Made by a program: the position numbers and the translations under genes. Shown one piece after another: positions 2,108-32,128 of a DNA stretch of 34,125 nt (position 1 is its first letter; each line of letters starts with the position of its first letter). The notes under the pieces were generated by a model that had not been told where the DNA came from, made no database searches, and saw only the letters and a program-made list of their open reading frames with translations. This DNA comes from a virus: positions 1 through 34,125 of the IMG/VR virus record IMGVR_UViG_3300017971_000569, one strand, 5' to 3'.

Positions 2108-2144
2108 GTGAACAAATCTCCTAGATCAGCCTTTCGGCAAGTTC

Positions 2145-2199: not shown

Positions 2200-2207
2200 A
2201 CTACCGA

Positions 2208-5837: not shown

Positions 5838-8217
5838 TGCCGCGCTCTATCTTGTCCAGCGCAGCTTCCGTCATTGCAGCTTCCTGCTCTGCCTTGCGCT
5901 TCCCTGCTTCTGCTTCGCGGGCAATCTTGGCCTCAGCCTCCGCGTCTTTGCGCTCAATGTCCGAGAGCGCCAGGGCATCCTTGCGGTCAATATCCGCCTG
6001 AGCGGCGCGATCCTTCATCTGGATGTCGGATGCAATCTTCAGTTGCTCGCCGGCACCGTTGTCTCCCTCCCCCTCTACGGCCGCTGCTTCAAGGCCGATG
6101 GTCTGTGGTGCCATGAGTTGCGTCACCTGGGCGGCCTGCTGTGCAATAAAGTTCTGCATGGTCGGGTCTTGCAGGGATTCAGGCGTCAAGCCCAACTGCC
6201 GCAGCATCTGTATGGTGTACCAGTGCGCCATGTGCTCCGCTTGGTGCGCTTTGTAGAAGGGCTCGAGATCGGCCTTCAGGTCGTCGGGCACCATCTGTTC
6301 CCACCACATGCCGTGGGCCGTGATATGGGCCAAGTGATCCTGTTCCGGGAACGCCTTGACTGCCTCGTTCATAAACAGCATCCGGCCCTCGGTGATCGGA
6401 TCGACAGGTTGGGCTTCTTCTGGCGACGGGATCAGCTCATCCACCTTGGCAACCTGCATCGAGGTCAGCATCCGGCGATGCACGGCACGCATGTCGTAGA
6501 TTTCCGGCGCCCGGGATGCCAGCTCAACAACGCCCTGTGCCTGGGCAATCCGCTGGGTGTTTGTGACCACGTTCGGGTCAGAGACAGGAACAACATCCAC
6601 CCGGGCGTCAAAGTCCGTATTCAGGATGACTGACTCAGCCTCTTCCACCATGTAGGGGTACTCGGCCGGCAGGAACTCCGAATACAGATCCGCCATGATC
6701 TTGAATTCTTCCGCGTGCGCCTCGTGAATACGCTTGTGGATCGCGGAGAAAACCTTTAGCCCCTGCTCGATAAGCGCCAGGGTGGTGCCGACTGGACCAT
6801 TGTTGTTGGCATCGCCAACCAGATTCTCCGTTGTTGACGTGAAGCGCCGGCCAACCTGATCGAGATAGCCAAGCATCTCAAACAGGCCCTTTGATGGCTC
6901 CCGGTACTCCATCGGATAGAAGCACTTTGCCAATTCCTCGGCGGTCATGTCTGTGTCGCGCCACTCACCCATGCCAAGCGGTTCGTCCGACTGCAGCTTG
7001 GCATCACGCGACTTGAAGCCGCCCTTCATGTTGGCGAAGCCGGCAGCGTCGAGGTATGCACGCAGGGCGCCGGTCGCCGCTGCCGCAAGACCGCCGATCA
7101 TGTGGACAAAGCCGTAGCCGTAGAAGCCGAACCCGGGCATAAACCGGTAATGGGTGACGTTCAGCCGGCGCTCTTTGCGCTGATCTCCCTCCTTCCAGCC
7201 TCGGCGGATAGCCAGAACCGCTTGGTTCTCCTTCTCCACCGTGACGATGTACGGCAGGGCAATCCCAGTTGGGCGGCCGTCAGGCCCCATATCCTCAAAC
7301 CCCTCGAGATCGAGGAAGCAGTAACACTCGAGCAGGGTGTATCCGGCATTTTCCTCGTAATCGACGGCCTCGCTTCCCTCAATGCGGTCGATCGCATCGT
7401 GAACACTGGTGTTCTCCAGACCAACGCCAGTCGGATCCGCAAAATGCTTGGGCTGCCGGTAGTAGCCCATCTGCACCAGCTTCTTGATGTCGTTTCCAGA
7501 AAAGTTCGGCATCCGGTGCGTGTAGCGGGTGGCTGTCTTCAGCGATGTCGCCTTGTAGGGAACCAAGAAGTCTGCAGCCTCGACGTAATCAGACCGAACC
7601 ATTGCCATCTGTGGATCAAAATACTGCTTCTTGAACGTCGAGCCCGACATCGGGAGACGCATCAGCATCCGATCCTCTTCGTCAAAGCCGCCGTTGACCT
7701 GGGTGTACTGCCAGTTCATAAAGTCTTTGACCCGGGTGGCCTGAGCCTCGACTTCCGGCGTCTTCACACCCATGACAACAGTTTTCACCGGGCCGCCGGC
7801 AGGCCATACCTCGGCAATAGCCCTGGCCTGGAAGTTGGAGCAGGCTTCAGCCAACAGCGGGTGAGTGGCCTCCGTTGCGCCCTTGAACTTGTTCACCGCA
7901 CTCTCGTCGGTGATGAGGCCAAGCAATACCATCCCGCGGCGCTCGCGGTCGTACCACTCCTTGCGACCTGACTCGTCACGATCGCACCACTCATCAACGT
8001 CCTGAGCAATCTCAACGAGAACACCCTCGTCAACGAACTCAGCCAAGTTGGCATAATGCTCGTCAGGGCTCTGCATCTCGGACGCCGGCATCAGCATGTC
8101 GGCCTCTTCGTCCGTCAGGATCTCATCCCCGTACTCGTCAGCCATGAGGCTCAGACGAGCAATCTCTTCGTCGGGGGTCTCGCTCAAAGGGAGCACATCA
8201 GCCATAGAATCCGCCAT
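5821..8217 (-). CDS. Portal protein
   Basis: 798 aa from ATG 8217, which has GGAG 5 nt upstream and overlaps the end of the terminase gene; longer starts lie further inside terL. Recognisable portal features: an acidic N-terminal segment, the KFKGATEATHPLLAEACSNFQARAIAEV helix, the wing/stem region, and RRFTSTTENLVGDANNNGPVGTTLALIEQGLKVFSAIHKRIHEAHAEEFK, typical of large P22-type podovirus/siphovirus portals. Residues ~715-798 form a Lys/Glu/Ala-rich coiled coil, consistent with a barrel-like extension. It forms the dodecameric DNA entry vertex and docks TerL. It is immediately downstream of terL, the classical order. Confidence 0.85.
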   Translation of the reverse strand: MADSMADVLPLSETPDEEIARLSLMADEYGDEILTDEEADMLMPASEMQSPDEHYANLAEFVDEGVLVEIAQDVDEWCDRDESGRKEWYDRERRGMVLLGLITDESAVNKFKGATEATHPLLAEACSNFQARAIAEVWPAGGPVKTVVMGVKTPEVEAQATRVKDFMNWQYTQVNGGFDEEDRMLMRLPMSGSTFKKQYFDPQMAMVRSDYVEAADFLVPYKATSLKTATRYTHRMPNFSGNDIKKLVQMGYYRQPKHFADPTGVGLENTSVHDAIDRIEGSEAVDYEENAGYTLLECYCFLDLEGFEDMGPDGRPTGIALPYIVTVEKENQAVLAIRRGWKEGDQRKERRLNVTHYRFMPGFGFYGYGFVHMIGGLAAAATGALRAYLDAAGFANMKGGFKSRDAKLQSDEPLGMGEWRDTDMTAEELAKCFYPMEYREPSKGLFEMLGYLDQVGRRFTSTTENLVGDANNNGPVGTTLALIEQGLKVFSAIHKRIHEAHAEEFKIMADLYSEFLPAEYPYMVEEAESVILNTDFDARVDVVPVSDPNVVTNTQRIAQAQGVVELASRAPEIYDMRAVHRRMLTSMQVAKVDELIPSPEEAQPVDPITEGRMLFMNEAVKAFPEQDHLAHITAHGMWWEQMVPDDLKADLEPFYKAHQAEHMAHWYTIQMLRQLGLTPESLQDPTMQNFIAQQAAQVTQLMAPQTIGLEAAAVEGEGDNGAGEQLKIASDIQMKDRAAQADIDRKDALALSDIERKDAEAEAKIAREAEAGKRKAEQEAAMTEAALDKIERGNDSET

Positions 8218-9883
8218 ACGATCTCCGTGATTCATCATCATCTTCAGTATCCCAGTTAGGGTCTTCGCCGCCAACCTGCGACTTCTCATCGACATCGTCA
8301 GGATGCTCGATCCACCAGCCCTGCTTGAGATAAAGGATTGCCTGTGTCACCGTGTCGGTGATGTCGGCAGAGGGCGGCGCTCCGTTGGGGAACACACCGC
8401 AGGCGTCTATCGCTTTTTCGGCCCAATGCCGGTTGGGTGCCCAGACCAAACCGGAAGACAGCGGAGAGGTAACGGCATGAGCACGTGATACCTTGTCCCT
8501 GTCAGGCGAATAGGTGCGTAGCCGAACACGCTTCCTGCCGCGGCCGGCGCGGCGCAAGTCCTGTATCAGCGACTGGCCGGATGCCTTCTTCTCGATAAGA
8601 TGCGCGTCAGGCAGGAACTCCAACGTATCGTCCTGGGCCTTCTGCCGCAGATCGGGGTAGGCAAGCTGTTCAGCCCAGCAGTGAAGTAGAATCAACTGGT
8701 ACGCCTGATCTTGCTCATTCCAGAACACACCCCAGGCTGTGCGGGCCGAGAACGATGCTTCCTTCAAGTCTCTCTCCGTGTAGGCCGTATCCCATGAAAG
8801 GAACACGTGCTCACACAACGGGAACGACTTGTCATCAGGCCAGCGGCGCCACCAGCTCTTGCGTAGGATCCCGCCCTCAGAAGGCGCTGGAGTCTGCTGG
8901 AGCTGAGCCGTTGCCCCATACACACCAGAGGTGCGCTCAAGGTCAGACTTCAGCCGGTGAACGGCATCCAGAGGAAACCGCTCAGGCCACAGAAGCTCGC
9001 CCTTCTTTGTGCGAGGGTCGGGAAAACCGATTCGTTTTGCCGGGTTGATCGGCGGCTTGTTCTTCTCGTCAAGCTCATACTGCATCGGCAGTACGAGACT
9101 TACCCACCCCATCTTGTTCCGCTCCGACCAGTCGCCATCCTTCGCCCGGACAACGCCGGCCAAGTCCGCCTCATGCAGGCGCTGCATGATAATGAGGATC
9201 CCACCATTTGCTTGATCGTTGAGGCGCGACGTCACTTTGCCGGTGTACGAGTCAATGACGTTAAGCCGATCGGCATCAGACATAGCCTTCTCAGCATCAT
9301 GCGGGTCGTCTATTAAGATTGTATCGCCACCCTTACCAGTTAGGGATCCCTGTATTGGGCGGCTGTTACGATGTCCGTTCGCCGTGTTGCGGTAGTAACT
9401 CTTCTCGTTCTGACCCTGCGGCACATTCACAAGATCGCCGAACAGCTCAACGAAATCATGGTGCTCCATCAGGTTCCGCGCCTGGACCGCATCGCGCAAC
9501 GCCAGCGGAGAATCGTTCGCCAAGCACAAGAACTGGTGCCAGTTTCCAACAAACTTGGCCGCCCAAGGGTCCGTCTTCGCCAGCCGCTCCCTGTCCTGTA
9601 TCCAGACCCACACCGGGAAGCACACTGACACCAAGGTTGATTTCATCCCTCGAGGGGGGATGTTCACAATGCCGCGATGAAACTTCCTGTAGGCAAACGC
9701 CATCAGGAACCGACAAATCAACTCCACCGACCAGTTCCACTTCAACTCGCGCCCAGGCTCGAGAATATGCCACGCCCACTCAACGAAAGCCGACAACGAA
9801 TCCTGCAATAGCTTGATCTGATTGCGTCGGGCAATCTCCCGGTCAACCTCAAGTTTCCGAATAAGGTCGTCACGGGAAAGCAT
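8198..9883 (-). CDS. terL: Terminase large subunit (ATPase/nuclease)
   Basis: 561 aa. The N-terminal ATPase has a Walker-A-like PPRGMKST at residues 76-83 and Walker B ILIDDPH at ~189-195, followed by an RL-rich coupling region (IIMQRLHEADLAG). The C-terminal RNase-H-like nuclease begins near FLSWDTAYTE with its first acidic residue. The tail is Asp/Glu-rich. The protein cuts concatemers and pumps DNA through the portal. ATG 9883 overlaps the stop of the upstream small gene (TGATG), so translation is probably coupled. TerS is about 5.2 kb away with an opposite-strand island in between, which is unusual. Confidence 0.92.
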   Translation of the reverse strand: MLSRDDLIRKLEVDREIARRNQIKLLQDSLSAFVEWAWHILEPGRELKWNWSVELICRFLMAFAYRKFHRGIVNIPPRGMKSTLVSVCFPVWVWIQDRERLAKTDPWAAKFVGNWHQFLCLANDSPLALRDAVQARNLMEHHDFVELFGDLVNVPQGQNEKSYYRNTANGHRNSRPIQGSLTGKGGDTILIDDPHDAEKAMSDADRLNVIDSYTGKVTSRLNDQANGGILIIMQRLHEADLAGVVRAKDGDWSERNKMGWVSLVLPMQYELDEKNKPPINPAKRIGFPDPRTKKGELLWPERFPLDAVHRLKSDLERTSGVYGATAQLQQTPAPSEGGILRKSWWRRWPDDKSFPLCEHVFLSWDTAYTERDLKEASFSARTAWGVFWNEQDQAYQLILLHCWAEQLAYPDLRQKAQDDTLEFLPDAHLIEKKASGQSLIQDLRRAGRGRKRVRLRTYSPDRDKVSRAHAVTSPLSSGLVWAPNRHWAEKAIDACGVFPNGAPPSADITDTVTQAILYLKQGWWIEHPDDVDEKSQVGGEDPNWDTEDDDESRRSYGGFYG

Positions 9884-10470: not shown

Positions 10471-10511
10471 GTAACTAAATAGTAACGGAAAAGTAACTCT
10501 CCTAGCGTCAC
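10471..10511 (+). repeat. Iteron-like element, copy 1 (GTAAC x3 at 11-bp spacing, then AGCGTCAC)
   Basis: GTAAC occurs at 10471, 10482 and 10493, exactly 11 bp apart (one helical turn), and AGCGTCAC follows at 10504, again 11 bp on. A second element with the same register is at 14314-14354 (29 of 41 positions identical by eye). Helically phased short repeats are typical of multi-subunit DNA binding. Candidates are TerS packaging sites, an activator array or recombination borders; none is proven. Confidence 0.6.
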
Positions 10512-10512
10512 A

Positions 10513-10555
10513 ACCAAGACAAAAGACCCTCTTTCCTTGAGACTTTTGTCTTGGT
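10513..10555. repeat. Perfect 13-bp inverted repeat in late leader
   Basis: ACCAAGACAAAAG (10513-10525) and its exact reverse complement (10543-10555) are separated by 17 nt. Neither strand has a U-tract, so it is not a standard terminator. In leftward mRNA it forms a long hairpin between the early terminator and the first gene. It may be an RNA control element or a protein site. Confidence 0.6.
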
Positions 10556-10583
10556 CTGGGAACAAGTTTCTCGAATCATAACG

Positions 10584-10614
10584 AAAAAAGCCCCAACCGG
10601 TAAGGAAGGGGCTT
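10584..10614 (-). terminator. Early intrinsic terminator downstream of late promoter
   Basis: On the minus strand: arm AAGCCCC (10614-10608), loop, arm GGGGCTT (10594-10588), then a run of T. It lies roughly 65-95 nt downstream of the predicted leftward start and ahead of all late genes, the same order as lambda pR'-tR'. Read-through would need antitermination. Confidence 0.7.
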
Positions 10615-10685
10615 GACTCGACCCATAGGGCATGGGATTTTAGATGCCAACAGGGCTGGACCCCCTATTGGCGAGCCGCTCACTC

Positions 10686-10715
10686 AGTATATACCAATCC
10701 TCGCTAAAAAGTTAA
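10686..10715 (-). promoter_or_regulatory. Predicted leftward late promoter
   Basis: On the minus strand: -35-like TTAACT (10715-10710), 16-bp spacer, -10 TATATA with extended TGG just upstream (an overlapping TATACT is also present). The predicted start is near 10678. It is the only good sigma-70-like match ahead of the late operon. Predicted from sequence only. Confidence 0.5.
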
Positions 10716-10910
10716 TAGCCGACGCCTATCGGTGTTGTCCATGAAAGTAGGCTATAGGCCCAGGGCATACGAGGGACCACACCGCGCACTGTCCGCCCTG
10801 GCAATTGGAACCATGTGGATTGGGGCAACCTAGTACAGCGACCGGTCTTCCGACCATGCTGGAAAGGGCGGTGGGTATGCCTGGAATCTTGCGATAGCCA
10901 GGATCAATCG
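10716..10910. other. Unassigned non-coding block between divergent control elements
   Basis: No convincing ORF on either strand. Short dyads are present: CCAGGGC (10760-10766) with GCCCTGG (10795-10801), GGTC-TTCC-GACC near 10843, and CCTGG/CCAGG near 10881-10902. GC content is high. It could hold a structured RNA, a packaging site or activator sites. I see nothing that decides. Confidence 0.3.
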
Positions 10911-10933
10911 AACTTCAAATTACGCTTTAAAAA

Positions 10934-10976
10934 TACAATGTAGCGCATTGGCGATCAGTATCGGACTAATGCGCTA
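10934..10976 (+). promoter_or_regulatory. Candidate promoter/operator of the rightward island
   Basis: TACAAT (10934-10939) is a good -10 match; the -35 is poor. Immediately downstream lies a perfect 9-bp inverted repeat, TAGCGCATT (10941-10949) with AATGCGCTA (10968-10976), and nested nearly concentrically within it CGAT-CAGT-ATCG (10952-10963). The dyad would cover the transcription start, as expected for an operator. A weak -35 suggests activator dependence. It precedes the AlpA-like gene, which may be the regulator. Confidence 0.5.
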
Positions 10977-11012
10977 AGATTGAGTCTGGCGAAATAAGGA
11001 AGGGTTTGAAGC

Positions 11013-11246
11013 ATGAAACTTCTCAAGTTGGCTGACGTTTCAAGGATTTTTGGGTTCTCGAGAACATCGATCTACGAACAAATCAGGGACGGAGTATTCA
11101 CGAAGCCCATCAAGGTCGGACCAAAGACATCGCGCTGGCCGGATTTTGAGGTAGAGCAGATCATCAAAGCGCGTATCTCTGGCAAGACAACCAAGCAAAT
11201 CAGAGCCCTCATCACCAGCCTTCACGCCTCGAGGGATAGCCTGTGA
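11013..11246 (+). CDS. AlpA-family transcriptional regulator / excisionase-like HTH
   Basis: 77 aa, the normal AlpA size. MKLLKLADVSRIFGFSRTSIYEQIRDGVFTKPIKVG is a winged MerR/AlpA-type helix-turn-helix: helix (LADVSRIFG), recognition helix (SRTSIYEQIRDG), then the wing with a conserved FxxPIKVG-type strand and SRWPDFEVEQII. Family members activate or repress phage and prophage genes or assist excision. It is the first gene of the plus-strand island and directly follows the operator-like dyad, suggesting self-regulation. No integrase is visible, so an excisionase role is less likely here. Confidence 0.8.
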   Translation: MKLLKLADVSRIFGFSRTSIYEQIRDGVFTKPIKVGPKTSRWPDFEVEQIIKARISGKTTKQIRALITSLHASRDSL

Positions 11247-11413
11247 GGGTCCGGGCAGACAGGAGAAAGGTGGATGAGCCGACGTGGAAAGGTATGGGCA
11301 AACCAATCCTGACCGTTGTCATCGGAGGGACCATCGCGATCATCGCGCTTATGGCTGCCGGCCACCTTGTTGGGCTCGTCTTTGGCGCCATATCAACGTG
11401 GGTGACGCCATGA
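11243..11413 (+). CDS. Small single-span membrane protein
   Basis: 56 aa from GTG 11243, overlapping the previous stop (GTGA), with GAGG upstream; its own stop overlaps the next ATG (ATGA). About 17 charged N-terminal residues precede a hydrophobic segment (residues ~20-50, ILTVVIGGTIAIIALMAAGH and LVGLVFGAI), long enough for one or two passes. The overlap at both ends supports a real gene. Possible roles include superinfection exclusion or host membrane modification; unproven. Confidence 0.6.
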   Translation: MRVRADRRKVDEPTWKGMGKPILTVVIGGTIAIIALMAAGHLVGLVFGAISTWVTP

Positions 11414-11877
11414 GTAGTCACGCAAAAGGGTTCGCTAGCGGATACAAGCGTGACGCAGAGCATGCTGATTTCGAGGAGCGTGTCGAAATAGGCAGGGTGA
11501 GACGCAAGCGCAAACAGGCAAAGCACTTCATTTCAAAATTCATCTGGTTCTGCGTAGTGCGCGAATGCCAACTCTACCGCGGCGAAGAAAAGTACCATCG
11601 TGTCATGGCAATGACCACGAAGGAATTGCGAATGACGAACGCAAAACTGTCGAATCAGTTCTTCACCCGGCTCGCAAAAGATGAAGACACCAGACTCTGG
11701 TATTGGAAAGAAATAGATCCAAAAGGAAATGGGAGGCTCATCGGCAACCTCTACACTCACTTTGAAGATCAAGTGTTCAACAAGTGGGATGTTCTCGAGC
11801 GTTACGCAGTATCTATTGGACTCACAGTGAAACGACACAAAGGAGACGACGATGGACAATCAACACAGAAAGATTGA
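11410..11877 (+). CDS. Unknown basic protein of the rightward island
   Basis: 155 aa from ATG 11410 (ATGA overlap). It is rich in Lys, Arg and aromatics (RRKRKQAKHFISKFIWFCVV, NQFFTRLAKDEDTRLWYWKE, THFEDQVFNKWDVLERYAV). There is no signal peptide; it looks cytoplasmic. It lies directly before the Acb2-like gene and overlaps it by 26 nt. No family recognised. Confidence 0.55.
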   Translation: MSSHAKGFASGYKRDAEHADFEERVEIGRVRRKRKQAKHFISKFIWFCVVRECQLYRGEEKYHRVMAMTTKELRMTNAKLSNQFFTRLAKDEDTRLWYWKEIDPKGNGRLIGNLYTHFEDQVFNKWDVLERYAVSIGLTVKRHKGDDDGQSTQKD

Positions 11878-12076
11878 TGGGTACAGAGAACTGAACGAAA
11901 ACGAGATCGATTGCATGAACGCAATCAAGGATATTGCGAACAAGGTCGGCAACCTCATCATAAACCTTGAGCGCGATATGACGACCGATGGGCGATGGGT
12001 TGCGATCGGCAAGAACGACCTTCAGAAGGGATTCATGGCGCTTGTGCGATCGGTTGCCAAGCCGAACAGTTTCTGA
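11852..12076 (+). CDS. acb2: Acb2-like anti-CBASS protein (cyclic-nucleotide sponge)
   Basis: 74 aa; AAGGAG lies 7 nt before ATG. The helical hairpin reads GYRELNENEIDCMNAIKDIA, a middle helix (VGNLIINLERDM), and DLQKGFMALVRSVAKPNSF at the C terminus. This is the pattern of the Acb2/Tad1 hairpin family: GY-x-T/N-E-E-I, N-x-I-K, and a final helix with A-x-R-A/S-V-x-x-P. T4 Vs.4 shares GYK and NAIKD in the same order. Tyr11 and Lys26 fall on the residues I recall as ligand contacts in Pseudomonas phage PaMx33 Acb2. Known members bind cyclic di- and trinucleotides made by CBASS and stop effector activation. Assignment is from pattern recall, not a search. Confidence 0.8.
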   Translation: MDNQHRKIDGYRELNENEIDCMNAIKDIANKVGNLIINLERDMTTDGRWVAIGKNDLQKGFMALVRSVAKPNSF

Positions 12077-12101
12077 GACCAGAGATCCGCGGAGAGAGTC
12101 G

Positions 12102-12269
12102 ATGACTGAGAAGTTCAAACCATCAGGCGTGTACAACCGAACAAGGCAGGACGGCAGGATCTACGAGGTAACGAAGAACTGCCCGTGCGATGACTGCAAA
12201 TTCAGGGTTGCATGTGTATCTGAGTGTGTGACTTTCACCCAATGGACAAAGAAGGCCGGCCGCAAATGA
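12102..12269 (+). CDS. Small Cys-rich protein, possible zinc knuckle
   Basis: 55 aa from ATG 12102 with GGAG 7 nt upstream. Five Cys in the second half (NCPCDDCKFRVACVSECV) suggest a metal site. Tyr/Arg-rich N terminus, basic C terminus. Its stop overlaps the next start (ATGA). Function unknown. Confidence 0.55.
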   Translation: MTEKFKPSGVYNRTRQDGRIYEVTKNCPCDDCKFRVACVSECVTFTQWTKKAGRK

Positions 12270-12595
12270 AGAAACCAAAAACAGAAGACGTTGAACACCA
12301 AACCATGGATGCCAACACCTTCCATGTTAATGAACCACCAAGGGACTTCCTTGAAATGCTCGAGAAGACCAGGGAGGTGCTCAAGGAAGTCAGGAGTAAG
12401 CAACTCGATGTTGAGTCGGCAAGAGGCTCCAAAGGCGACACGCCGCACTGCAGTCAACCAAGGGACTACGCTACCCAGGAATCACCAGAGCAACCGGCAG
12501 TGAGCATAAGCGTTAAGTGCGGAATCGTCGCACTCGTCTCCCTGTCGTTCGGCGCAATCATCGGTGTGGCTACAACCTACCTCTTCAGACTGTAG
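12266..12595 (+). CDS. C-terminally anchored membrane protein
   Basis: 109 aa from ATG 12266 (ATGA overlap). A polar cytoplasmic part with a short coiled coil (FLEMLEKTREVLKEVRSK) is followed at residues ~78-107 by one hydrophobic span (VKCGIVALVSLSFGAIIGVA then TTYLF) ending two residues before the C terminus. This is a tail-anchored layout. Phage proteins of this shape may alter the host envelope, but no family is recognised. Confidence 0.55.
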   Translation: MKKPKTEDVEHQTMDANTFHVNEPPRDFLEMLEKTREVLKEVRSKQLDVESARGSKGDTPHCSQPRDYATQESPEQPAVSISVKCGIVALVSLSFGAIIGVATTYLFRL

Positions 12596-12624
12596 TGAAT
12601 ATGATCTGAAAGGAAAAAGCTAAG

Positions 12625-12654
12625 ATGACAAAACAAAGGGGAATTGGGAAATGA
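12625..12654 (+). CDS. Possible 9-codon leader ORF
   Basis: ATG 12625 with AAGGA about 10 nt upstream encodes nine residues (MTKQRGIGK) and stops at TGA 12652-12654, overlapping the next start as ATGA. It may couple ribosomes to the following gene. Too short to judge as a product. Confidence 0.25.
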   Translation: MTKQRGIGK

Positions 12655-12983
12655 GTGGAAAAGTTGATTTGGTGGAGTCGATACTCTTTGAACGTGACGG
12701 GCTGAGGGCAGAGATCGAAGAGCTTCGCAAACAACTTCAAGCAAGCTATGAGCAGGAGGTTAATACAAGAGGCCGCACAGAATTACGTGAGGCACGAGAC
12801 CGATGGATGAATCGTGCGCGAATTGCTGAGAAACAAATAGAGGCGCTGAATAAAGCACTGAAACGAATAGCGGATGCTGACGGAAGCTACTCGGCCGTTG
12901 CCTTGCAGAAGGTCGCACGTGAGGCAATCGAGTCCGCTATGGGAGACACCGAATGTGGCCAAAAAGCATTGGGAGGAAGGTGA
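12651..12983 (+). CDS. Coiled-coil protein
   Basis: 110 aa. Heptad-like Leu/Glu/Arg spacing (LVESILFERDGLRAEIEELR, then ARIAEKQIEALNKALKRI) predicts a long coiled coil over residues ~5-80; the end is VAREAIESAMGDTECG. The start overlaps the nine-codon leader. Its last coding stretch (GCTATGGGAGA-ACCGA) is nearly repeated at the end of the next gene, hinting at local duplication. Confidence 0.5.
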   Translation: MSGKVDLVESILFERDGLRAEIEELRKQLQASYEQEVNTRGRTELREARDRWMNRARIAEKQIEALNKALKRIADADGSYSAVALQKVAREAIESAMGDTECGQKALGGR

Positions 12984-13198
12984 TGGAACCTGACCGCGAT
13001 GGGGGACACATGAAACAAACACTGGCCCAAGAATTCCAATGGTCATTAATGGCGGTTCTAGCTCACGCGCAAGATATGTGCAGCGCAGGAAGCTATAAGA
13101 AAAAACAGACGCAGATGCTGCACGAAGACTTAACCAGACAGTGGAGAAAGCTTCGCGATGAGCTAGAAACAGCTATGGGAGAAACCGATGTCAAGTGA
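12983..13198 (+). CDS. Small hypothetical protein
   Basis: 71 aa from ATG 12983 (TGATG overlap; AGGAAGG just upstream). Mostly helical: TLAQEFQWSLMAVLAHAQDM then LTRQWRKLRDELETAMGE. A start ten residues later (MKQT) is also possible. Ends with the same ATGGGAGA-ACCGA stretch as the previous gene. Unknown function. Confidence 0.5.
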   Translation: MEPDRDGGHMKQTLAQEFQWSLMAVLAHAQDMCSAGSYKKKQTQMLHEDLTRQWRKLRDELETAMGETDVK

Positions 13199-13400
13199 TA
13201 TGTATGCGCTGCCCGATAGGTCGGTGACGCCAGATCCTGCAAAAGCGGCGGAGGAGTGGGCTAAAGCGTTTTATCAAGCAAAAGACGCAATTAACAGGAT
13301 CTTGCCAGTACCTTCTATGGTTCTTAACCATCTTCCGGTAAGGGATCTGAGGGAGATTATTGAAGAATGCAAAGAAGTCATTAAGCTTGGAGAAAAATAA
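13188..13400 (+). CDS. Small hypothetical protein
   Basis: 70 aa, GGGAG 7 nt before ATG, overlapping the previous gene by 11 nt. Helical and amphipathic (AAEEWAKAFYQAKDAINRIL; LREIIEECKEVIKLGEK). No family recognised. Confidence 0.5.
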   Translation: MSSDMYALPDRSVTPDPAKAAEEWAKAFYQAKDAINRILPVPSMVLNHLPVRDLREIIEECKEVIKLGEK

Positions 13401-13456
13401 TGGAACATGACCGCAAGAATAAATATGAGGATAACTTAGATGATGAAGCGCTTTGA
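13400..13456 (+). CDS. Possible 18-codon ORF
   Basis: ATG 13400 overlaps the previous stop (TAATG). The 18 residues begin MEHDRKNK, resembling the MEPDRDG start of the gene at 12983, so it may be a remnant or a coupling peptide. It overlaps the next gene by 17 nt. Weak evidence as a functional product. Confidence 0.25.
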   Translation: MEHDRKNKYEDNLDDEAL

Positions 13457-13871
13457 TCCGGTCGATCATGACGACTTTGGCTATGACTGTATGGGTTTTA
13501 TGGCGGAGACAGAGCTTGGGGATTGGGTTAGCTATGAAGACGCTGAGGCAGAGATCGAGGCGCTGAAAGATAAGATTGAAACCATAACCAAACAACGCGA
13601 CCGCATGTACGATGACATGTTGCTGTGGCGAGGTATCGACCGCGACGGCGGAGACACACCATGCAAGGCCTGCTCTGGCGCTGGAGTCCGAGCATACGGC
13701 GATACAGCAACATGGCGAGGTGGCATTGGAGGGCAGGTCATTACAAATGACATTTGCGACAAATGCTGGGGCAGCGGAAAAGCTAAAAAACCGTGGTTAA
13801 ACCTGCGGCGTTTATCGCGCCAACAGCGCAAGGATCGATCGATTCATCGACTGAAGAGGAATCAGGCGTGA
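13440..13871 (+). CDS. Zinc-finger/coiled-coil protein
   Basis: 143 aa; GAGG about 10 nt before ATG. An acidic N-terminal part, a coiled coil (AEAEIEALKDKIETITKQRD), then two DnaJ-type CxxCxGxG-like motifs (CKACSGAG and CDKCWGSG, residues ~75-115) likely binding zinc, and a basic tail. Such fingers occur in phage Q-type antiterminators and in DnaJ; here there is no J domain. A nucleic-acid or protein-binding role is likely. Confidence 0.55.
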   Translation: MMKRFDPVDHDDFGYDCMGFMAETELGDWVSYEDAEAEIEALKDKIETITKQRDRMYDDMLLWRGIDRDGGDTPCKACSGAGVRAYGDTATWRGGIGGQVITNDICDKCWGSGKAKKPWLNLRRLSRQQRKDRSIHRLKRNQA

Positions 13872-14317
13872 AACCAAAAATCAAACTGCTGTCCTGGGAA
13901 ATCCTCATCGCAGCACACGCCGGCTGCATGCGTCAGGTCGAGAACCTGAGAAGCCAGAGGGTGCCAGCATACGGGGCAGGCAAACTCGCAGACTGGCAAC
14001 TCCACATCGAGGGCGTACTGGGCGAGTACGCATTATCCAAGTACCTGAATATCCGCTGGGAAGGAAAAGGAAAACTCAGGGCTCCAGATGTCGGCCCCGT
14101 CGACGTGAGAACCCGAAGCAAACACAACTACGAACTGATCCTGCACAAGGAAGACGAAGACGATCGCCAATTCTGGCTGCTCACCGGAACCAACGGAGAG
14201 TACATCGTCCATGGCTACATCCTCGGCTCAGACGGAAAACGTGAGGAATACTGGAAAGACCCGGCCGGCGGCAGGCCCGCATACTTCGTCCCACAGGATA
14301 AGCTCACCCTCGAGTAA
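13868..14317 (+). CDS. Possible PD-(D/E)XK-like protein, last gene of the island
   Basis: 149 aa from GTG 13868 (GTGA overlap). A helix with Glu (HIEGVLGEYALSKYL) precedes APDVGPVDVRTRSKHNYELI; E...D...DxR resembles the active-site spacing of PD-(D/E)XK nucleases with Arg in place of Lys. The C-terminal half is beta-rich (FWLLTGTNGEYIVHGYI). A nuclease-like fold is a guess. Its stop codon lies inside the second iteron-like element. Confidence 0.45.
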   Translation: MKPKIKLLSWEILIAAHAGCMRQVENLRSQRVPAYGAGKLADWQLHIEGVLGEYALSKYLNIRWEGKGKLRAPDVGPVDVRTRSKHNYELILHKEDEDDRQFWLLTGTNGEYIVHGYILGSDGKREEYWKDPAGGRPAYFVPQDKLTLE

Positions 14318-14354
14318 CACTCGCGTGACGAAAAAGTAACGCACGAAGCGTCAC
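14314..14354 (+). repeat. Iteron-like element, copy 2 (GTAAC-GTGAC-GTAAC at 11 bp, then AGCGTCAC)
   Basis: GTAAC at 14314, GTGAC at 14325, GTAAC at 14336 and AGCGTCAC at 14347, each 11 bp apart: the same register and orientation as copy 1 at 10471-10511. The longest shared blocks are AAAAGTAAC and AGCGTCAC. CGTGACG (14324-14330) and CGTCACG (14349-14355) also form an inverted repeat. The element overlaps the stop of the last island gene. Confidence 0.6.
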
Positions 14355-15082: not shown

Positions 15083-15688
15083 TCAGTGGTGACGCTCCTG
15101 CAGCTCAACCCCGTGCAGCTCTGCCTTCTCAGCCTGGGTGGCATGCACCTGGGCAAGCCGCTGGGCCTCCGCCCGCAACTCCGCGTCAGTCATGTCTGCC
15201 AACTTGTGCTCGTAAACGTGCTGGTCCTTGAACATGCCAAGCTCGATGCCCATCATCTTGATCGCCGCCAGCTTGTCGATGAACTTGATCTCGGTCAGCG
15301 TAGCCTTGCCCAACTCGATGGACCGCACCTTGACGCTGCTGATCGCACGCTGAACCGGCTCGGGCATCTCCTTGATTGGCAACAGTTTCCCGTCATTGTC
15401 AAAGGCGTCAGCCGGGTTAAGGATCGCGGAGCACTCCAGCTCCTGCAGCAGGCGGGCATCATCCACGATTTCACGGGCCTCGCGCACCAGGGCCTGGGCC
15501 TCAGTGTTTGCGATTACCTGCGCGACGATCGCCATGATCCTGGGGTCGCTCTTCAGCTTATGTCCCTGTTTCGCTGCGTTTTTTAGGCTGTATCCGGCTT
15601 TTATGGCGGCCTGGGTTGCATTAGATAAGGAAGCGTATTCGCGTGCGAATAGGCGTTGCTGGTCAGTGAGTGGGTATTGTCTAGCCAT
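15083..15688 (-). CDS. terS: Terminase small subunit (Terminase_2-like)
   Basis: 201 aa from ATG 15688. The N terminus PLTDQQRLFAREYASLSNAT, then AAIKAGYSLKNAAKQGHKL and a run of helices, matches the HTH DNA-recognition region of Terminase_2 small subunits. A basic/acidic helical oligomerisation region follows and the C-terminal ~50 residues are charged (ELRAEAQRLAQVHATQAEKAEL). It recognises the packaging start site and regulates TerL. It is separated from terL by about 5.2 kb including an opposite-strand island. The SD is weak. Confidence 0.85.
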   Translation of the reverse strand: MARQYPLTDQQRLFAREYASLSNATQAAIKAGYSLKNAAKQGHKLKSDPRIMAIVAQVIANTEAQALVREAREIVDDARLLQELECSAILNPADAFDNDGKLLPIKEMPEPVQRAISSVKVRSIELGKATLTEIKFIDKLAAIKMMGIELGMFKDQHVYEHKLADMTDAELRAEAQRLAQVHATQAEKAELHGVELQERHH

Positions 15689-24456: not shown

Positions 24457-25004
24457 TCACCCATTGCACGATTCAGGCGGCGCCTCCCGTAAGACTCCCA
24501 GGAGCCAAGCGATAGAAGGATTCGGTTGTATAGGGAGTCGATCTTCCGGTCTCGCCAAGTATTCTTGTGTATTCCCACCGACTCGGCTTTTTTGCGGCCA
24601 GAGTAGCGGTATCTGCCATTTCCGCCACAAGATGGGCACACCACCGGCCGACGCATACCTTTACGTTCACGCATTACCTCCCCAGTTCCTTTGCAATGCG
24701 AACATCGCCTGTCGTCAAAATGCTCGGCAATGGCCAGCAACATCAGGTCATCGACCTGACAGGCGTCAAGCCGGTACCTCTTGGCGTGTCCTGCCCAACG
24801 AACATGCAGAGCACGAATCAACTCTGGCGTATGCAACCCATGCCCCCCGTACTTCGCCAGCAGCATCTCGACCACGTGCGGCTTCTTTATCCACCCAAGG
24901 CCGATCAGCAAATCCTCGATTACGAAGCGATCGGCACAACCCGCACGATTGCGCGGGCCGCCCCCGGCTGACAGCATCGCCAGCCGCTCAAGGATGTTAC
25001 TCAC
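24453..25004 (-). CDS. Q-like antitermination protein
   Basis: 183 aa from GTG 25004, which overlaps the previous stop; Met at 24977 is an alternative. RRCSHCKGTGEVMRERKG then VVCPSCGGNGRYRYSGRKKA is the paired CxxCxGxG zinc finger of lambda-type Q, followed by a basic helix region (NTWRDRKIDSLYNRILLSLG). Q proteins load on RNA polymerase at the late promoter and suppress terminators. It closes the O-P-nin-like operon, exactly where Q lies in lambda. The target would be the leftward promoter near 10.69 kb with its early terminator. Confidence 0.7.
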   Translation of the reverse strand: MSNILERLAMLSAGGGPRNRAGCADRFVIEDLLIGLGWIKKPHVVEMLLAKYGGHGLHTPELIRALHVRWAGHAKRYRLDACQVDDLMLLAIAEHFDDRRCSHCKGTGEVMRERKGMRRPVVCPSCGGNGRYRYSGRKKAESVGIHKNTWRDRKIDSLYNRILLSLGSWESYGRRRLNRAMGD

Positions 25005-25500
25005 TCGCCCAGCCGGCAACGGTAAGGCCAAACTGCCCGATCAATGCAGCCTCGGCACGATCGGCGTCTTTGATGCGCCGGAACTCATCAGACAAATCGG
25101 GCCACTTCGCCAGGGCCAAAGCCCGAGACGCGGACTTGTCCTTCTTCAGCAGGCCGTGATACTTCTTCCACGTCTGCGGACGAACAAACCGGGTAGTCAG
25201 GTGGTGCGCCCCAATCACGCCACGAATGACACCAAATCCATCCCCAAACTTGAATGCTGCAGGCCGGCTATCAGTTGGCATCGGGCCAACCTGCTCAACC
25301 ACGCACTCGATCTTGTTATCTCCAGCCAGTTCTCGGGCTTCTTCCACGATATCCGCAAGCAGAAAAGGATTCACTTCTCGTCCCTTTCCCTGCGGCCGGT
25401 CGAGCGATGGCATGTCCCAAATCCTCATCGGGTAACCATCGGCAGCAACCAACGCGATTGCTCCATCCAGTCCGGGATCAAACGCCAGTATGACTACCAT
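24997..25500 (-). CDS. RuvC-like Holliday junction resolvase
   Basis: 167 aa from ATG 25500 (AGGTG upstream; overlaps the YbcO-like end). MVVILAFDPGLDGAIAL carries the first catalytic Asp (FDPG); CVVEQVG supplies the second acid; KDADRAEAALIG near the C terminus gives the last Asp pair of RNase-H-fold resolvases. It resolves branched DNA made in replication and recombination, the same role as Rap/RusA in lambdoid nin regions. Confidence 0.75.
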   Translation of the reverse strand: MVVILAFDPGLDGAIALVAADGYPMRIWDMPSLDRPQGKGREVNPFLLADIVEEARELAGDNKIECVVEQVGPMPTDSRPAAFKFGDGFGVIRGVIGAHHLTTRFVRPQTWKKYHGLLKKDKSASRALALAKWPDLSDEFRRIKDADRAEAALIGQFGLTVAGWASE

Positions 25501-25814
25501 ATCTTCACCTTCATCTCCCAAAGCCGGATCAGCGACTTTTTCATTGCTTCGTTGAAGTAGTGCCGAAGGGTTTCCCTGTCGTAAGCGGTCTTCCTCCTTC
25601 CATCTAAAATATCGTGGCACTGGCTACACCCATAACACCCACAGAAGTCATGGCTCTTTGCTCCCATAGAGGGGCCGTCCCCGATGAATGGCGAATGACA
25701 CCAAACCACGGTTGCAGAGTCATGGTTATCAATCCCAGGAAACAGGAGGGTACAGGATTGCCCCCTCGCTGATTCGCGGATCTTGTTGCTACGGTGCGAC
25801 GTCGTTTTCAGCAT
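25494..25814 (-). CDS. YbcO-like (DUF1364) putative nuclease
   Basis: 106 aa from ATG 25814. SHRSNKIRESARGQSCTLLF and PGI, VVWCHSP, then CGCYGCSQCHDILDGRRKTA and YDRETLRHYFNEAM match prophage YbcO: R-x-x-ARG-x-x-C, H, C-x-x-CH-x-x-(I/L)DGR, YDR. The Cys and His suggest an HNH-like metal site. YbcO-type genes are usual in lambdoid nin regions beside resolvases. Exact substrate unknown. Confidence 0.75.
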   Translation of the reverse strand: MLKTTSHRSNKIRESARGQSCTLLFPGIDNHDSATVVWCHSPFIGDGPSMGAKSHDFCGCYGCSQCHDILDGRRKTAYDRETLRHYFNEAMKKSLIRLWEMKVKIW

Positions 25815-27377: not shown

Positions 27378-28069
27378 GCCCTACCCCTGCGGTCGCGCTC
27401 TGCAGGCTGGTTGAGATGAACAGTAACCAGATCAGACAGCTTCACCCGCTTGAACGCCTCATCGGCAGCCTTCAGTATCCCCTCGGCAAACTGCTGTAAC
27501 TCAGGGTTGCGGCGGGCCAATGTAGCAAGACCCTGGATCAACACAGAGTCGTGCGCCTCGCGCTGAGCCTTCTGCAGGCGCAGCCGTTCTATCCGCTCAC
27601 GCATTTCCTCCATTTCCTGCCCATGCCTGATCTGCTCGCAAGGGGTACCAAGCGCAGCATCCTTGAGCATGACGTTCTCGATCTTGACCTTCTTGAAATC
27701 CTCTATGGCGCCAGCCAGGGTGACCTTCGTGTTTTTCAGCACTGACTCCAAGCGATCGACCTTCTCGTACTCAGTGCGCAACTGAGCTATTGCCTCCATC
27801 GCAAGATAGGTCATCGCATCTTGAAAATCAGCATTAAGGGATTCACCATCCTCGATGCTAATTCCAATCCTGTCTGGATCCTCAGTGTGAATCGACAAGA
27901 GCAAAGTCCACTGAAATTCCCACGGGTCTGCATCGGCAGTCACGCAAGCCATCCAATCATCCTGATCTTCAGAATCCATCTGCTCAAACTCGACCGGCTT
28001 GATCGTGAAATAGTCGATCAGGCATTGGGAAAAATCGTTCACCTTCTGGGTGAATGTTTCTTTGTTCAT
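27374..28069 (-). CDS. Coiled-coil protein of the replication cluster
   Basis: 231 aa from ATG 28069 (GGAG 8 nt upstream, AGGAGTGCA block). Acidic N-terminal half, then a long coiled coil (LRTEYEKVDRLESVLKNTKV and EEMRERIERLRLQKAQ, residues ~95-180). The SD block and ATGA overlap show coupling with the P-like gene. Unknown function. Confidence 0.55.
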   Translation of the reverse strand: MNKETFTQKVNDFSQCLIDYFTIKPVEFEQMDSEDQDDWMACVTADADPWEFQWTLLLSIHTEDPDRIGISIEDGESLNADFQDAMTYLAMEAIAQLRTEYEKVDRLESVLKNTKVTLAGAIEDFKKVKIENVMLKDAALGTPCEQIRHGQEMEEMRERIERLRLQKAQREAHDSVLIQGLATLARRNPELQQFAEGILKAADEAFKRVKLSDLVTVHLNQPAERDRRGRA

Positions 28070-28647
28070 TTTTTGCACTCCTGGGTAAAGCCTTCGGCCT
28101 TTCTCTTCTCGTAATCGCCGCCGCGGCCAAAGGCGAACTCATCGGCAGCAACACGTTTCGGTGGGACGTACTCCGGATCCTCCTTCGTGCCCTTGCGGAG
28201 GTTGTGCTTGATGATCGAGATCGCGGCCAGGGCCTTATGCTTGCTCGACTTCGGTTTCGGTAATGCCGGAGGAAATCGCTTGTGCGCTTCCGTTGCTGGC
28301 CTATTCTGCCGGCAAGAGGCACGAAACTGCGGCGCGCTCGGCGGCATATCCGGCAGACGAGTCAAAGCATCGGCTATTTCTTTCGGCTCGACCCCCGCCA
28401 GAACCTTCGCCCAAGCCTGCATTTTGTCTTCAGTGTCACGCTGGCTCGTCGTCTGGGAGTTCCAGACATTGCCGTACAGCTCACCAAACCGCTTGAAGAT
28501 CCCGATGACATAGGCCCGCTCAAGGCCGACCCAGCTCCTTGTCGAGTTCGGCGTTGAGGTAGTCGCTGATCTGCTGGTTATGCTCTCTTGCGCTCGTCTT
28601 GCCAGTGCCCCGGCCGGCTGTGGCTTGCTGTCCCGATCCGTTTCCAC
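28066..28647 (-). CDS. P-like replication protein (helicase loader candidate)
   Basis: 193 aa if translated from GTG 28647, which has GGAG 7 nt upstream but overlaps the O-like gene by 128 nt. The convincing part begins at residue ~41: GLERAYVIGIFKRFGELYGN then WAKVLAGVEPKEIADALTRL and a basic C-terminal half (FPPALPKPKSSKHKALAAIS). This matches phage replication proteins that follow O-like genes and handle the host helicase (lambda P, G40P-loader-like). The N-terminal 40 residues are low-complexity and may not be native. Confidence 0.65.
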   Translation of the reverse strand: METDRDSKPQPAGALARRAQESITSRSATTSTPNSTRSWVGLERAYVIGIFKRFGELYGNVWNSQTTSQRDTEDKMQAWAKVLAGVEPKEIADALTRLPDMPPSAPQFRASCRQNRPATEAHKRFPPALPKPKSSKHKALAAISIIKHNLRKGTKEDPEYVPPKRVAADEFAFGRGGDYEKRKAEGFTQECKK

Positions 28648-29383
28648 GATTTTTCTCCCAAGTGCGGACTGCGGCTTTCCAGTCCTTCATCGTTTGCTTG
28701 TTTGTCAGCACCCAGCCACGTGCCGTGTAGTAATCCACGAAAGCCTCTGGATCCACGGTGTTCCCTCGTTCGGCACAGTAGGCGTGAACTTCAGCGACTG
28801 TTGGTGGCCTTTGCCTTTCGGCGACTTTTTTCTTTGGAACTACCGTAGGTAGTTCTTTCTTTATCTCTTTCTCTTTCTCTTTCTCTGTCGTCACAGAGCG
28901 TCTCACTTCGTCACACTTCGTCACACCTCCTTCGCTCTTGGTCTTTTGTCTGTCTCTCCATGCAGCCGTCCTTTCTTTCCCTTCCTTTGCTGGCTGCTTC
29001 GGAACTTCATTGAAATCATTGAAGAAATCTGGAAAAACAAGACCGTCTTTGGTCTCTTTTGCCCAACCAACACGGCACATTGCACCACCAAATCCTGGGC
29101 AGTTTGTCATAAGGTCAATGAAGGAATCTGTTGCCCCTGGAAGTAGGCAATCACCATTTTCTTGGGGCTCTCCCCGGTGTCTAACAACAGACCATGTGAC
29201 GGCCAATCCACCAATCGTGACGAGGCGTAACACATGATCCGTCACATTTACGTCACCATCGTTACCTTGGGTACAATGGTCATGGAATGAGTCAGACGTT
29301 GACAGCTCAATAATCATGCCCAGAACATTCGGGTGATTGAATAGTGATGAGCGCATTTTTATCCAGTCGTCTTTGCTCGCCAT
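28520..29383 (-). CDS. O-like replication initiator
   Basis: 287 aa from ATG 29383, just after the previous stop. The N-terminal domain (MASKDDWIKMRSSLFNHPNV, VTDHVLRLVTIGGLAVTWSV) is a phage O/DnaD-type winged-helix region. A charged KEKEKEIKKE linker follows, then DPEAFVDYYTARGWVLTNKQ and MKDWKAAVRTWEKN, the DnaD-like domain that recruits the helicase loader. Like lambda O, the gene contains tandem repeats and a low-complexity A/T-rich stretch. Confidence 0.75.
   Translation of the reverse strand: MASKDDWIKMRSSLFNHPNVLGMIIELSTSDSFHDHCTQGNDGDVNVTDHVLRLVTIGGLAVTWSVVRHRGEPQENGDCLLPGATDSFIDLMTNCPGFGGAMCRVGWAKETKDGLVFPDFFNDFNEVPKQPAKEGKERTAAWRDRQKTKSEGGVTKCDEVRRSVTTEKEKEKEIKKELPTVVPKKKVAERQRPPTVAEVHAYCAERGNTVDPEAFVDYYTARGWVLTNKQTMKDWKAAVRTWEKNRGNGSGQQATAGRGTGKTSAREHNQQISDYLNAELDKELGRP
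28837..28926. other. Candidate replication origin inside the O-like gene
   Basis: Four tandem 10-bp units at 28887-28926 (GTCGTCACAG, AGCGTCTCAC, TTCGTCACAC twice) share CGTC-CA. Next to them is a polypyrimidine microsatellite (28856-28886; CTTTCT-type units) and a perfect GAACTACC-GTA-GGTAGTTC palindrome (28837-28855). Iterons followed by a low-complexity, easily melted tract within O is the lambda ori plan. The 10-bp period is not a codon multiple, so protein repetition does not explain it. Confidence 0.55.
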
Positions 29384-29384
29384 A

Positions 29385-30331: not shown

Positions 30332-30384
30332 ACACTCTATTGCAATAGACCGCTATTTAGCGTAAACATGCAATCTCAGAGTGT
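30332..30384 (+). promoter_or_regulatory. Rightward early control region with nested palindromes
   Basis: Two perfect 12-bp palindromes, CTATTGCAATAG (30337-30348) and CGCTATTTAGCG (30351-30362), lie inside the outer inverted pair ACACTCT (30332-30338) and AGAGTGT (30378-30384). A tentative rightward promoter is TTGCAA (30340-30345), 17 bp, TAAACA (30363-30368); the second palindrome would occupy the spacer. Likely operator sites for an unseen regulator. Confidence 0.45.
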
Positions 30385-30404
30385 CTAATTTTAGGAGAAC
30401 ACGC

Positions 30405-31460: not shown

Positions 31461-31693
31461 GCGGCCTCACAGAAAAGTACCGCGAGTACCTTGCGGCAAA
31501 GGAACGGCATCAGGCCGCGAAGGACGTAACCAAAGCGGCCTACAGCGAAGAGAACTCAGCTTACAACAAGCTGGTTAATTCGCTGACCACCAGCCAGAGC
31601 AAGAAGATCATCCCGCATGATGGTGGGTTTTTGGTTCTCTGGAAAGATCAATACGGGAAGCTCTATATCGAGACAGCGGAGTTCTCTGAATGA
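31457..31693 (+). CDS. Small coiled-coil protein
   Basis: 78 aa, ATGA overlap with recT. LTEKYREYLAAKERHQAAKD then a beta-rich end (GFLVLWKDQYGKLYIETAEF). Coupled to recT; may assist recombination, but nothing proves it. Confidence 0.55.
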   Translation: MSGLTEKYREYLAAKERHQAAKDVTKAAYSEENSAYNKLVNSLTTSQSKKIIPHDGGFLVLWKDQYGKLYIETAEFSE

Positions 31694-31959
31694 GCAAGAA
31701 ATATCCGCGGTTTGGCGAGGTCTACAAGCACTACTCCATCCAGGCTCGGCAGCAACCGACGCTCCCGAAGTGTGAACTGTGCGGAGACACCACCGTCGCC
31801 GGCATCAACATGCAGGTCGATTACATGCGCGGGAACGATGAGTTTTTCAGGGTGTGTAAGGAGCACCTTGAACTTGCAAAGCTGGATGGCACGGCGTTCT
31901 ACGCAAAATACTGGACCTATAGGGATGAGCAAGAGAAGGGAGATAACAGTGATGGATAG
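31690..31959 (+). CDS. Small CxxC protein
   Basis: 89 aa, ATGA overlap. CELCGDTTV then VCKEHLELAKL give a CxxC...CxxH set that likely binds zinc. No family recognised. Confidence 0.5.
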   Translation: MSKKYPRFGEVYKHYSIQARQQPTLPKCELCGDTTVAGINMQVDYMRGNDEFFRVCKEHLELAKLDGTAFYAKYWTYRDEQEKGDNSDG

Positions 31960-32128
31960 GCGCAACTTCATCAAAGGCTTCGTTGGGCGGGCAATGCGCC
32001 CCGGAGTTATTGAGCAAGCAAGTATCAACCTGCCGTGGTTTCCTGAGAAGAAGATCAACATCAAATTCTCCGACAAGATACTGACTCTGGACAGCACCAT
32101 CAAAATATTCGGGGTAAAGCTGACATGA
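31952..32128 (+). CDS. Small protein with RRNFIK start
   Basis: 58 aa from ATG 31952 (GGAG 10 nt upstream). Starts MDRRNFIKGFVGRAMRPGVI, later FSDKILTLDSTIKIFGVKLT. The RRxFIK start looks like a Tat motif, but there is no hydrophobic segment after it. Unknown function. Confidence 0.45.
   Translation: MDRRNFIKGFVGRAMRPGVIEQASINLPWFPEKKINIKFSDKILTLDSTIKIFGVKLT

What the first reader, a model, noticed from the sequence alone, without database searches (positions are those of the whole stretch)
10471..14354. Opposite-strand island between TerS and TerL bordered by matching iteron elements
Seen: twelve small plus-strand genes interrupt a long minus-strand run and separate terS from terL. At both borders lies a 41-bp element in the same orientation: three GT(A/G)AC units 11 bp apart plus AGCGTCAC in register. 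The island starts with an AlpA-like regulator and holds an Acb2-like gene and two membrane proteins. It could be a mobile or exchangeable counter-defence module, or the elements could be packaging sites flanking it by chance.
Basis: partly seen in the sequence, partly recalled or inferred. Interest (0 to 1): 0.75.

Follow-up and report, generated by a model that had tools for sequence, protein, structure and literature searches.

The report
Extra origin-type sites beside terminase genes
In this phage, two copies of the kind of DNA site that its own replication-starting protein probably binds lie far from their usual place, on either side of a swappable set of accessory genes (one an anti-defence gene) between the two DNA-packaging genes, which hints at a second replication start or switch point there.

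Summary
The two elements are real and where stated, but they are not ends of a mobile unit and probably not packaging sites. Read in terL direction each is an inverted unit GTNACG, 14 bp, then direct GTNAC units every 11 bp. The same array occurs in 96 viral stretches (reversed-pattern control: 13). Of 91 distinct array contexts, 67 lie inside replication-initiator genes. A matrix from other phages' arrays scores the window's two at 40.0 and 32.7 bits; nothing exceeds 8 in 2.1 Mb of background. The window's own initiator gene (28520-29383) holds degenerate versions, 14.9 and 18.7 kb away. So these are ectopic origin-type iteron arrays. Three of four close TerL relatives with upstream sequence carry one (L002, L004, L005; not L003). 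L004 has one array and Acb2 in terL orientation; the left array lies outside the variable segment. Closest precedent: phage SPP1, with oriL inside its initiator gene and a distant oriR in a moron segment interrupting the late genes. A late origin or fork barrier is my preferred role (inferred); an operator role is the main rival. Binding is untested.

The parts
14314..14354 (-). right (terS-side) ectopic iteron array; inverted unit at the 14354 end; overlaps the stop codon of the last island gene
   Evidence: matrix score 40.0 bits
14355..14434 (.). AT-rich flank of the right array on its inverted-unit side (64% A+T against 44% for the window); possible unwinding region, weak evidence
   Evidence: no such general asymmetry in 69 other arrays
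10471..10511 (-). left (terL-side) ectopic iteron array, 33 bp before the first start codon of the terL operon
   Evidence: matrix score 32.7 bits
28520..29383 (-). replication initiator gene
   Evidence: phrog_2509 7.2e-17, phrog_9474 1.1e-11; its best hit is phrog_15768 of unknown function, 2.2e-20; profile grown from array-bearing genes 2.5e-15 in a one-sequence search
29196..29265 (-). degenerate in-gene array 1 of the initiator gene
28890..28924 (-). degenerate in-gene array 2 (three GTGAC units), next to a purine-rich tract
28066..28647 (-). weakly P-like helicase-loader candidate
   Evidence: phrog_109 6.7e-5; better hit phrog_1524 of unknown function 2.6e-7
11013..11246 (+). AlpA-like regulator, first gene of the variable segment
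   Evidence: PF05930 7.8e-9
11243..11413 (+). small protein with a hydrophobic stretch
   Evidence: ORF; hydrophobic by eye
11410..11877 (+). 155-aa protein, no family hit
11852..12076 (+). Acb2/Tad1 hairpin protein
   Evidence: PF24729 4.1e-14
12102..12595 (+). two small genes (12102-12269, 12266-12595), the second with a hydrophobic stretch
   Evidence: ORFs; no hit for the second; the first was not searched
12651..13871 (+). four small genes (12651, 12983, 13188, 13440), no family above a cut-off
13868..14317 (+). phrog_18407 protein (unknown function), last gene of the variable segment
   Evidence: 1.6e-29
15083..15688 (-). TerS
   Evidence: PF03592 1.6e-22
8198..9883 (-). TerL
25000..25620 (-). 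Holliday-junction resolvase
   Evidence: phrog_1770 5.8e-22
30381..33822 (+). recombination genes: RecT-like annealing protein (30381-31460), exonuclease-like (32348-33055, 33046-33822)
   Evidence: phrog_148, phrog_298, phrog_10477

Best explanation
The two elements are origin-type iteron arrays for the phage's own replication initiator (28520-29383), placed outside that gene, on the terS and terL sides of an exchangeable accessory-gene segment. Most likely they work like oriR of phage SPP1: replication starts at the arrays inside the initiator gene; initiator bound at the late-region arrays then acts as a second start site or as a barrier to forks; stalled forks are processed by exonuclease, RecT-like protein and Holliday-junction resolvase into the concatemers that TerS/TerL package. 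Shown: the array grammar, its frequent place inside initiator genes of other phages, the ectopic copies in this clade, and the recombination genes. Inferred: binding by this initiator, origin or barrier activity, and the switch. Odds: initiator-type arrays 0.85; given that, late-origin or barrier role about 0.5.
For: 96 viral stretches carry the pattern against 13 for the reversed one. 67 of 91 distinct contexts lie in the initiator frame, and the window's initiator hits the same profile and the same PHROG as an array-bearing initiator. Matrix scores 40.0 and 32.7 in the window, 43.2, 37.6, 33.1 in L004, L005, L002, none above 8 in 2.12 Mb of background. In 35 of 53 arrays all four units share the oriented middle base, shuffle maximum 9, as for a binder that varies between phages. 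Degenerate arrays in the window's own initiator gene. 8 of 14 named phages with related initiators carry the two-unit dyad in the stretch fetched. SPP1 has the same layout. RecT-like, exonuclease and resolvase genes are present.
Against: No binding or replication data. 6 of 14 named phages with related initiators lack the dyad in the stretch fetched, and 10 of 11 loci found through the window's initiator have no 3-unit cluster. 19 arrays outside the clade were not placed in an initiator gene. In bacterial and archaeal genomes only 2 of 36 pattern matches lie in initiator frames, and others there score up to 45.5, so a high score alone proves little. The AT-rich side is not a general feature (35 of 69). 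L003 lacks the arrays. Initiator genes of L002, L004 and L005 are not in their contigs. The initiator's resemblance to SPP1 G38P was not tested (record not held).
Confidence: 0.45

Rival explanations
1. Operator role: initiator bound at the arrays represses or times transcription of the genes just downstream in terL direction (terL operon in the window, L002 and L005; Acb2 module in L004).
For: The left array ends 33 bp before a start codon; arrays of L002, L004 and L005 also end 2 to about 30 bp before ORF starts. In Rac 442/2 and vB_EcoS-673R7 one dyad lies 13-15 bp upstream of the initiator gene.
Against: The right array faces the end of convergent genes and precedes no gene in its direction. 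Four-unit arrays are larger than the two-unit dyads near those starts. No sigma-70 promoter was found next to the right array.
Confidence: 0.27
2. Relics of module exchange: the arrays came along with segments taken from initiator regions of other phages and do nothing now.
For: A 44-45% identical relative of the last island gene lies just before the initiator gene in L129 and L169.
Against: Exact 14-11-11 spacing is kept in window (two), L002, L004 and L005 while spacers diverge, which suggests selection.
Confidence: 0.13
3. Packaging (TerS-binding) sites.
For: Place between TerS and TerL in the window, L002 and L005 (TerS not seen in the last two) and L004.
Against: In other phages the arrays lie in initiator genes. 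L003, with both terminase genes, has none.
Confidence: 0.06
4. Ends of a mobile or site-specifically exchanged island.
For: Direct orientation on both sides of the genes; AlpA-like gene.
Against: Left array lies outside the variable segment; unlike flanks; none in L003; one in L004. No integrase among the 11 island genes (two small ones, 11243-11413 and 12102-12269, were not searched).
Confidence: 0.03
5. The right element is an intrinsic terminator between convergent genes.
For: Terminator-like match at 14354-14336; mean 0.6 in shuffles.
Against: Does not explain the third and fourth units or the 11-bp period; the L002, L004 and L005 arrays have no T run after the dyad. It could be an added function of one copy.
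Confidence: 0.03

Closest known systems
Bacillus phage SPP1 oriL/oriR with initiator gp38 (G38P)
   Same: One array region inside the initiator gene and a distant one in the late region, beside moron genes that interrupt the late gene order; recombination genes for concatemer replication (passages of PMC6316719 and PMC3485210).
   Different: Here two distant arrays, either side of the segment; different repeat; Acb2-bearing genes; relation of the initiators untested; no experimental binding.
In-gene iteron arrays of phrog_2509/9474 replication initiators (lambda O-like layout)
   Same: Same unit and 14-11-11 spacing; the window's initiator belongs to the same PHROGs.
   Different: The window's canonical arrays lie 14.9 and 18.7 kb from the initiator gene; the in-gene ones are degenerate.
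Acb2/Tad1 counter-defence genes in phages
   Same: PF24729 domain; relatives in 227 phage records.
   Different: In five mid-size phages viewed Acb2 was not between TerS and TerL, though beside terL or portal in some.

Membership tests
Origin-type iteron arrays of phrog_2509/9474 initiators | Unit and spacing grammar | tested here: met
Origin-type iteron arrays of phrog_2509/9474 initiators | Phage encodes an initiator of that family | tested here: met
   (window only; relatives' contigs are too short)
Origin-type iteron arrays of phrog_2509/9474 initiators | Location inside the initiator gene | tested here: not met
   The canonical arrays lie 14.9 and 18.7 kb away; hence called ectopic. Degenerate ones are inside.
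Origin-type iteron arrays of phrog_2509/9474 initiators | Bound by the initiator | not testable with these tools
   Needs a binding assay
SPP1-type second origin (oriR) | Distant second array with the same repeat as the in-gene array | tested here: met
   in-gene copies are degenerate
SPP1-type second origin (oriR) | AT-rich unwinding region beside the repeats | tested here: inconclusive
   64% and 60% A+T on one side; not a general asymmetry
SPP1-type second origin (oriR) | Initiator homologous to gp38 | not tested
   SPP1 record not held
SPP1-type second origin (oriR) | Fork stalling or initiation at the site | not testable with these tools
   Needs replication data
Mobile island bounded by the elements | Island-free relative with a single element at the joint of both sides | tested here: not met
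   L004: single array on the terS side, with blocks B and C between the accessory genes and terL
Mobile island bounded by the elements | Repeats include matching flanks or a duplicated target | tested here: not met
Packaging (pac) site | Occurs with the terminase genes rather than elsewhere | tested here: not met
   67 of 91 contexts in initiator genes; absent from L003
Acb2/Tad1 hairpin family | Curated Pfam score | tested here: met
   52.9 bits, cut-off 27

The most novel reading that the evidence does not exclude
This clade has moved its canonical initiator arrays from the initiator gene to both sides of the TerS-TerL accessory segment, so that initiator binding there both triggers the switch to concatemer replication at the packaging locus and gates expression of the counter-defence and terminase genes: one protein coupling replication, packaging and counter-defence.
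Probability: 0.15. Interest if true: 0.8.

Novelty: new variant of a known kind. Interest (0 to 1): 0.5.

Why it matters
In what I read, SPP1 is the one studied tailed phage with a second, late-region origin bound by the same initiator. A lineage with another repeat and the same layout would suggest that such arrays recur beside accessory genes in the late region, and would make the theta-to-concatemer switch testable in a new system. The array grammar is also a sequence handle for finding origins in environmental phages whose initiator genes are annotated as hypothetical.

Tried and rejected
The 13868-14317 protein by peptide pattern: none confirmed. TerL relatives in bacterial and archaeal genomes: none. 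Array pattern in bacterial and archaeal genomes: 36 stretches, 2 in initiator frames; I viewed eight high-scoring others and saw no clear initiator or terminase by eye.

Rac oriJ as an experimental anchor: dropped, because the K-12 Rac stretch has no dyad although Rac of strain 442/2 has three. Simple inversion of an L004-like Acb2 module: not favoured; in a 9-sequence tree the window's Acb2 is not sister to L004's (weak). L004 homology runs about 35 bp into the 3' end of an L004 ORF, but the protein search gave no window match, so a gene remnant is unproven. Structure of the 13868-14317 protein: mean pLDDT 38, not used. Initiator model: first domain confident, but no PDB match at E <= 0.001; best Z 5.6 over 76 residues to a CRP-type regulator, Rep-type initiators listed at 4.5-4.6: suggestive of a winged helix only. 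Block B did not fold better than shuffles on either strand.

Choices made by hand: 11 loci dropped before building the matrix (L091, L098 of the window's clade; L088, L103, L115, L116, L134, L135, L141, L160, L173 as repeats or non-initiator contexts), leaving 61 arrays, 53 after near-duplicates; some arrays not placed in an initiator frame stayed in. One search was given 30 of the 96 stretches, picked by hand among longer contigs (over 16 kb); others of that length were left out.
Full report
1. Observation. The two elements are present at the stated coordinates, and the full pattern occurs nowhere else in the window. The degenerate patterns gave no match in 200 dinucleotide shuffles. The window is a 34,125-base virus record. 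The tail AGCGTCAC is the inverted fourth unit: read in terL direction each element is GTGACGC, then GTNAC units at 14, 11 and 11 bp steps. The copies share 29 of 41 bases; flanks are unlike. The variable segment has 11 genes of 55 aa or more, among them an AlpA-like gene, an Acb2/Tad1 gene and a phrog_18407 gene.

2. Relatives. TerL relatives in viral contigs: L002 93%, L003 85%, L004 85%, L006 84%, L005 82%, L007 69%, L008 45% identical. Of the six at 69% or more, four hold sequence upstream of terL: L002, L004 and L005 carry the array with 14-11-11 spacing (L005's in reversed orientation), L003 does not; L008 has upstream sequence and no cluster. L003 and L004 span terS to terL. L004 reads TerS, array, Acb2, two small genes, block B, block C, terL operon, all in terL orientation. 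L003 has a different opposite-strand ORF and no array. Block B (10743-10881) and block C (10584-10715) are shared with L004 and L002, so the left array lies beyond them and the variable segment runs from the right array to about 10.88 kb. The elements are therefore not the borders of a mobile unit.

3. What the elements are. The pattern GTNACG-N8-GTNAC-N6-GTNAC-N6-GTNAC finds 96 stretches in viral contigs, the reversed pattern 13. Many lie in a gene whose product begins like MAGDWIK. With a profile grown from one such protein, 67 of 91 distinct contexts lie in a frame of that family; of the other 24, five are those of the window and its TerL relatives, and 19 stayed unplaced (short contigs, divergent genes, repeats or chance). 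L104's protein is phrog_2509 (9.3e-52) and phrog_9474, 'replication initiation protein'; the window's 28520-29500 product hits both (7.2e-17, 1.1e-11), after a better hit to a family of unknown function, and hits the grown profile at 2.5e-15 in a one-sequence search. Inside this gene are two degenerate arrays. A matrix from 53 arrays outside the clade gives 40.0 (right) and 32.7 (left), next best in the window -2.7; 43.2, 37.6 and 33.1 in L004, L005 and L002; none above 8 in 2.12 Mb of background loci on both strands. Against over-reading: among 36 pattern matches in bacterial and archaeal genomes only 2 are in initiator frames, and others score up to 45.5. In 35 of 53 arrays all four units share the oriented middle base (shuffle mean 3.0, maximum 9); relatedness among arrays inflates this.

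4. Is the place unusual? In 30 longer array-bearing records, 29 have all matches starting within 277 bp of each other; the exception holds its distant match in a second initiator-like gene. The backward control gave 0 in all 30. I did not check each of the 30 clusters against a gene call. In 14 named phage records with related initiators, 2 match the 3-unit pattern, once each and inside the initiator gene; 5 have a cluster of three or more units and 8 have the two-unit dyad in the stretch fetched, 6 have none. In Rac 442/2 and vB_EcoS-673R7 one dyad lies 13-15 bp before the initiator gene. So among what I examined, canonical arrays far from an initiator gene were seen in the window; for L002, L004 and L005 the array lies near terL, but their initiator genes are not in the contigs.

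5. Mechanism. SPP1's initiator gp38 binds oriL inside gene 38 and oriR some 12-13 kb away; [quoted passage not shown] oriR and three moron genes form a segment that interrupts the conserved late gene order; gp38 bound at oriR is proposed to stall forks and trigger the switch to concatemers with exonuclease, annealing recombinase and resolvase (passages of PMC6316719; passages of PMC3485210). The window has in-gene arrays, distant arrays beside a moron-like segment, a RecT-like protein and exonucleases and a Holliday-junction resolvase. I therefore favour a late origin or fork barrier. The main rival is an operator role, since the left array and those of L002, L004 and L005 precede ORF starts closely. 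The two can coexist.

6. Limits. Nothing here shows binding. The AT-rich flank is weak evidence. The relatives' contigs are short and the window may be incomplete. Eight searches of the paper library (listings, plus passages of six papers) showed me no report of these arrays; the library lacks most subscription journals, so this does not establish that they are unpublished. That Acb2 is a counter-defence protein and that lambda's origin lies in its O gene are recalled, not tested.

7. Verdict. Observation confirmed and re-identified; first reading partly supported. New variant of a known kind: an SPP1-like second initiator-binding region built from phrog_2509-type iterons around a TerS-TerL accessory segment.

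Noticed in passing
window 10743-10881 (-), L004 3796-3937, L002 8-81: Block B: conserved non-coding stretch with a 7-bp stem of which 4 pairs change on both sides between window and the other two (one event, three sequences); not more stable than shuffles.
   Followed up: partly
window 10584-10715 (-), L004 about 3985-4110, L002 about 195-305: Block C: a TATACT promoter-like site, about 100 nt, then a GC hairpin with a T run, before the terL operon; resembles lambda's late promoter with its short leader RNA (recalled). A Q-like antitermination gene is at 24456-25031 (phrog_127, 9.7e-10). The terminator scan itself did not list the hairpin.
   Followed up: partly
window 14466-14504 (-); L003 1388-1426: Block A: 39 bp, 92% identical to L003, non-coding, downstream of terS; candidate packaging site.
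   Followed up: no
window 10514-10554: Perfect 12-bp inverted repeat (CCAAGACAAAAG) three bases from the left array.
   Followed up: no
window 10941-10976: Perfect 9-bp inverted repeat (TAGCGCATT) upstream of the AlpA-like gene; possible operator.
   Followed up: no
L169 4686-5171 and L129 9690-10109 with L129 8870-9655: A 44-45% identical relative of the last island gene lies directly before an array-bearing initiator gene.
   Followed up: partly
window 18152-18742 (-): Conflicting calls: RusA-like resolvase by PHROGs (4.6e-28) but sliding-clamp central domain by Pfam (1.4e-8).
   Followed up: no
L226 1195, 1388, 1595; L236: Rac of strain 442/2 has three dyads in and before ydaU; the K-12 Rac stretch has none: the two ydaU regions differ.
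   Followed up: no
L342 (Janthinobacterium sp. SUN073), array at 1545-1585: Intergenic array about 30 bp from the start of an ORF that looks integrase-like by eye.
   Followed up: no
L004 3427-3621: Gene after Acb2 is a crAss001_48-related protein (PF21825, 1.4e-16); L003 has a 70% identical copy without Acb2 beside it.
   Followed up: no
window 2143-2233 (-): Weak Rfam match to anti-hemB RNA (27 bits, gathering 49.5), probably chance.
   Followed up: no
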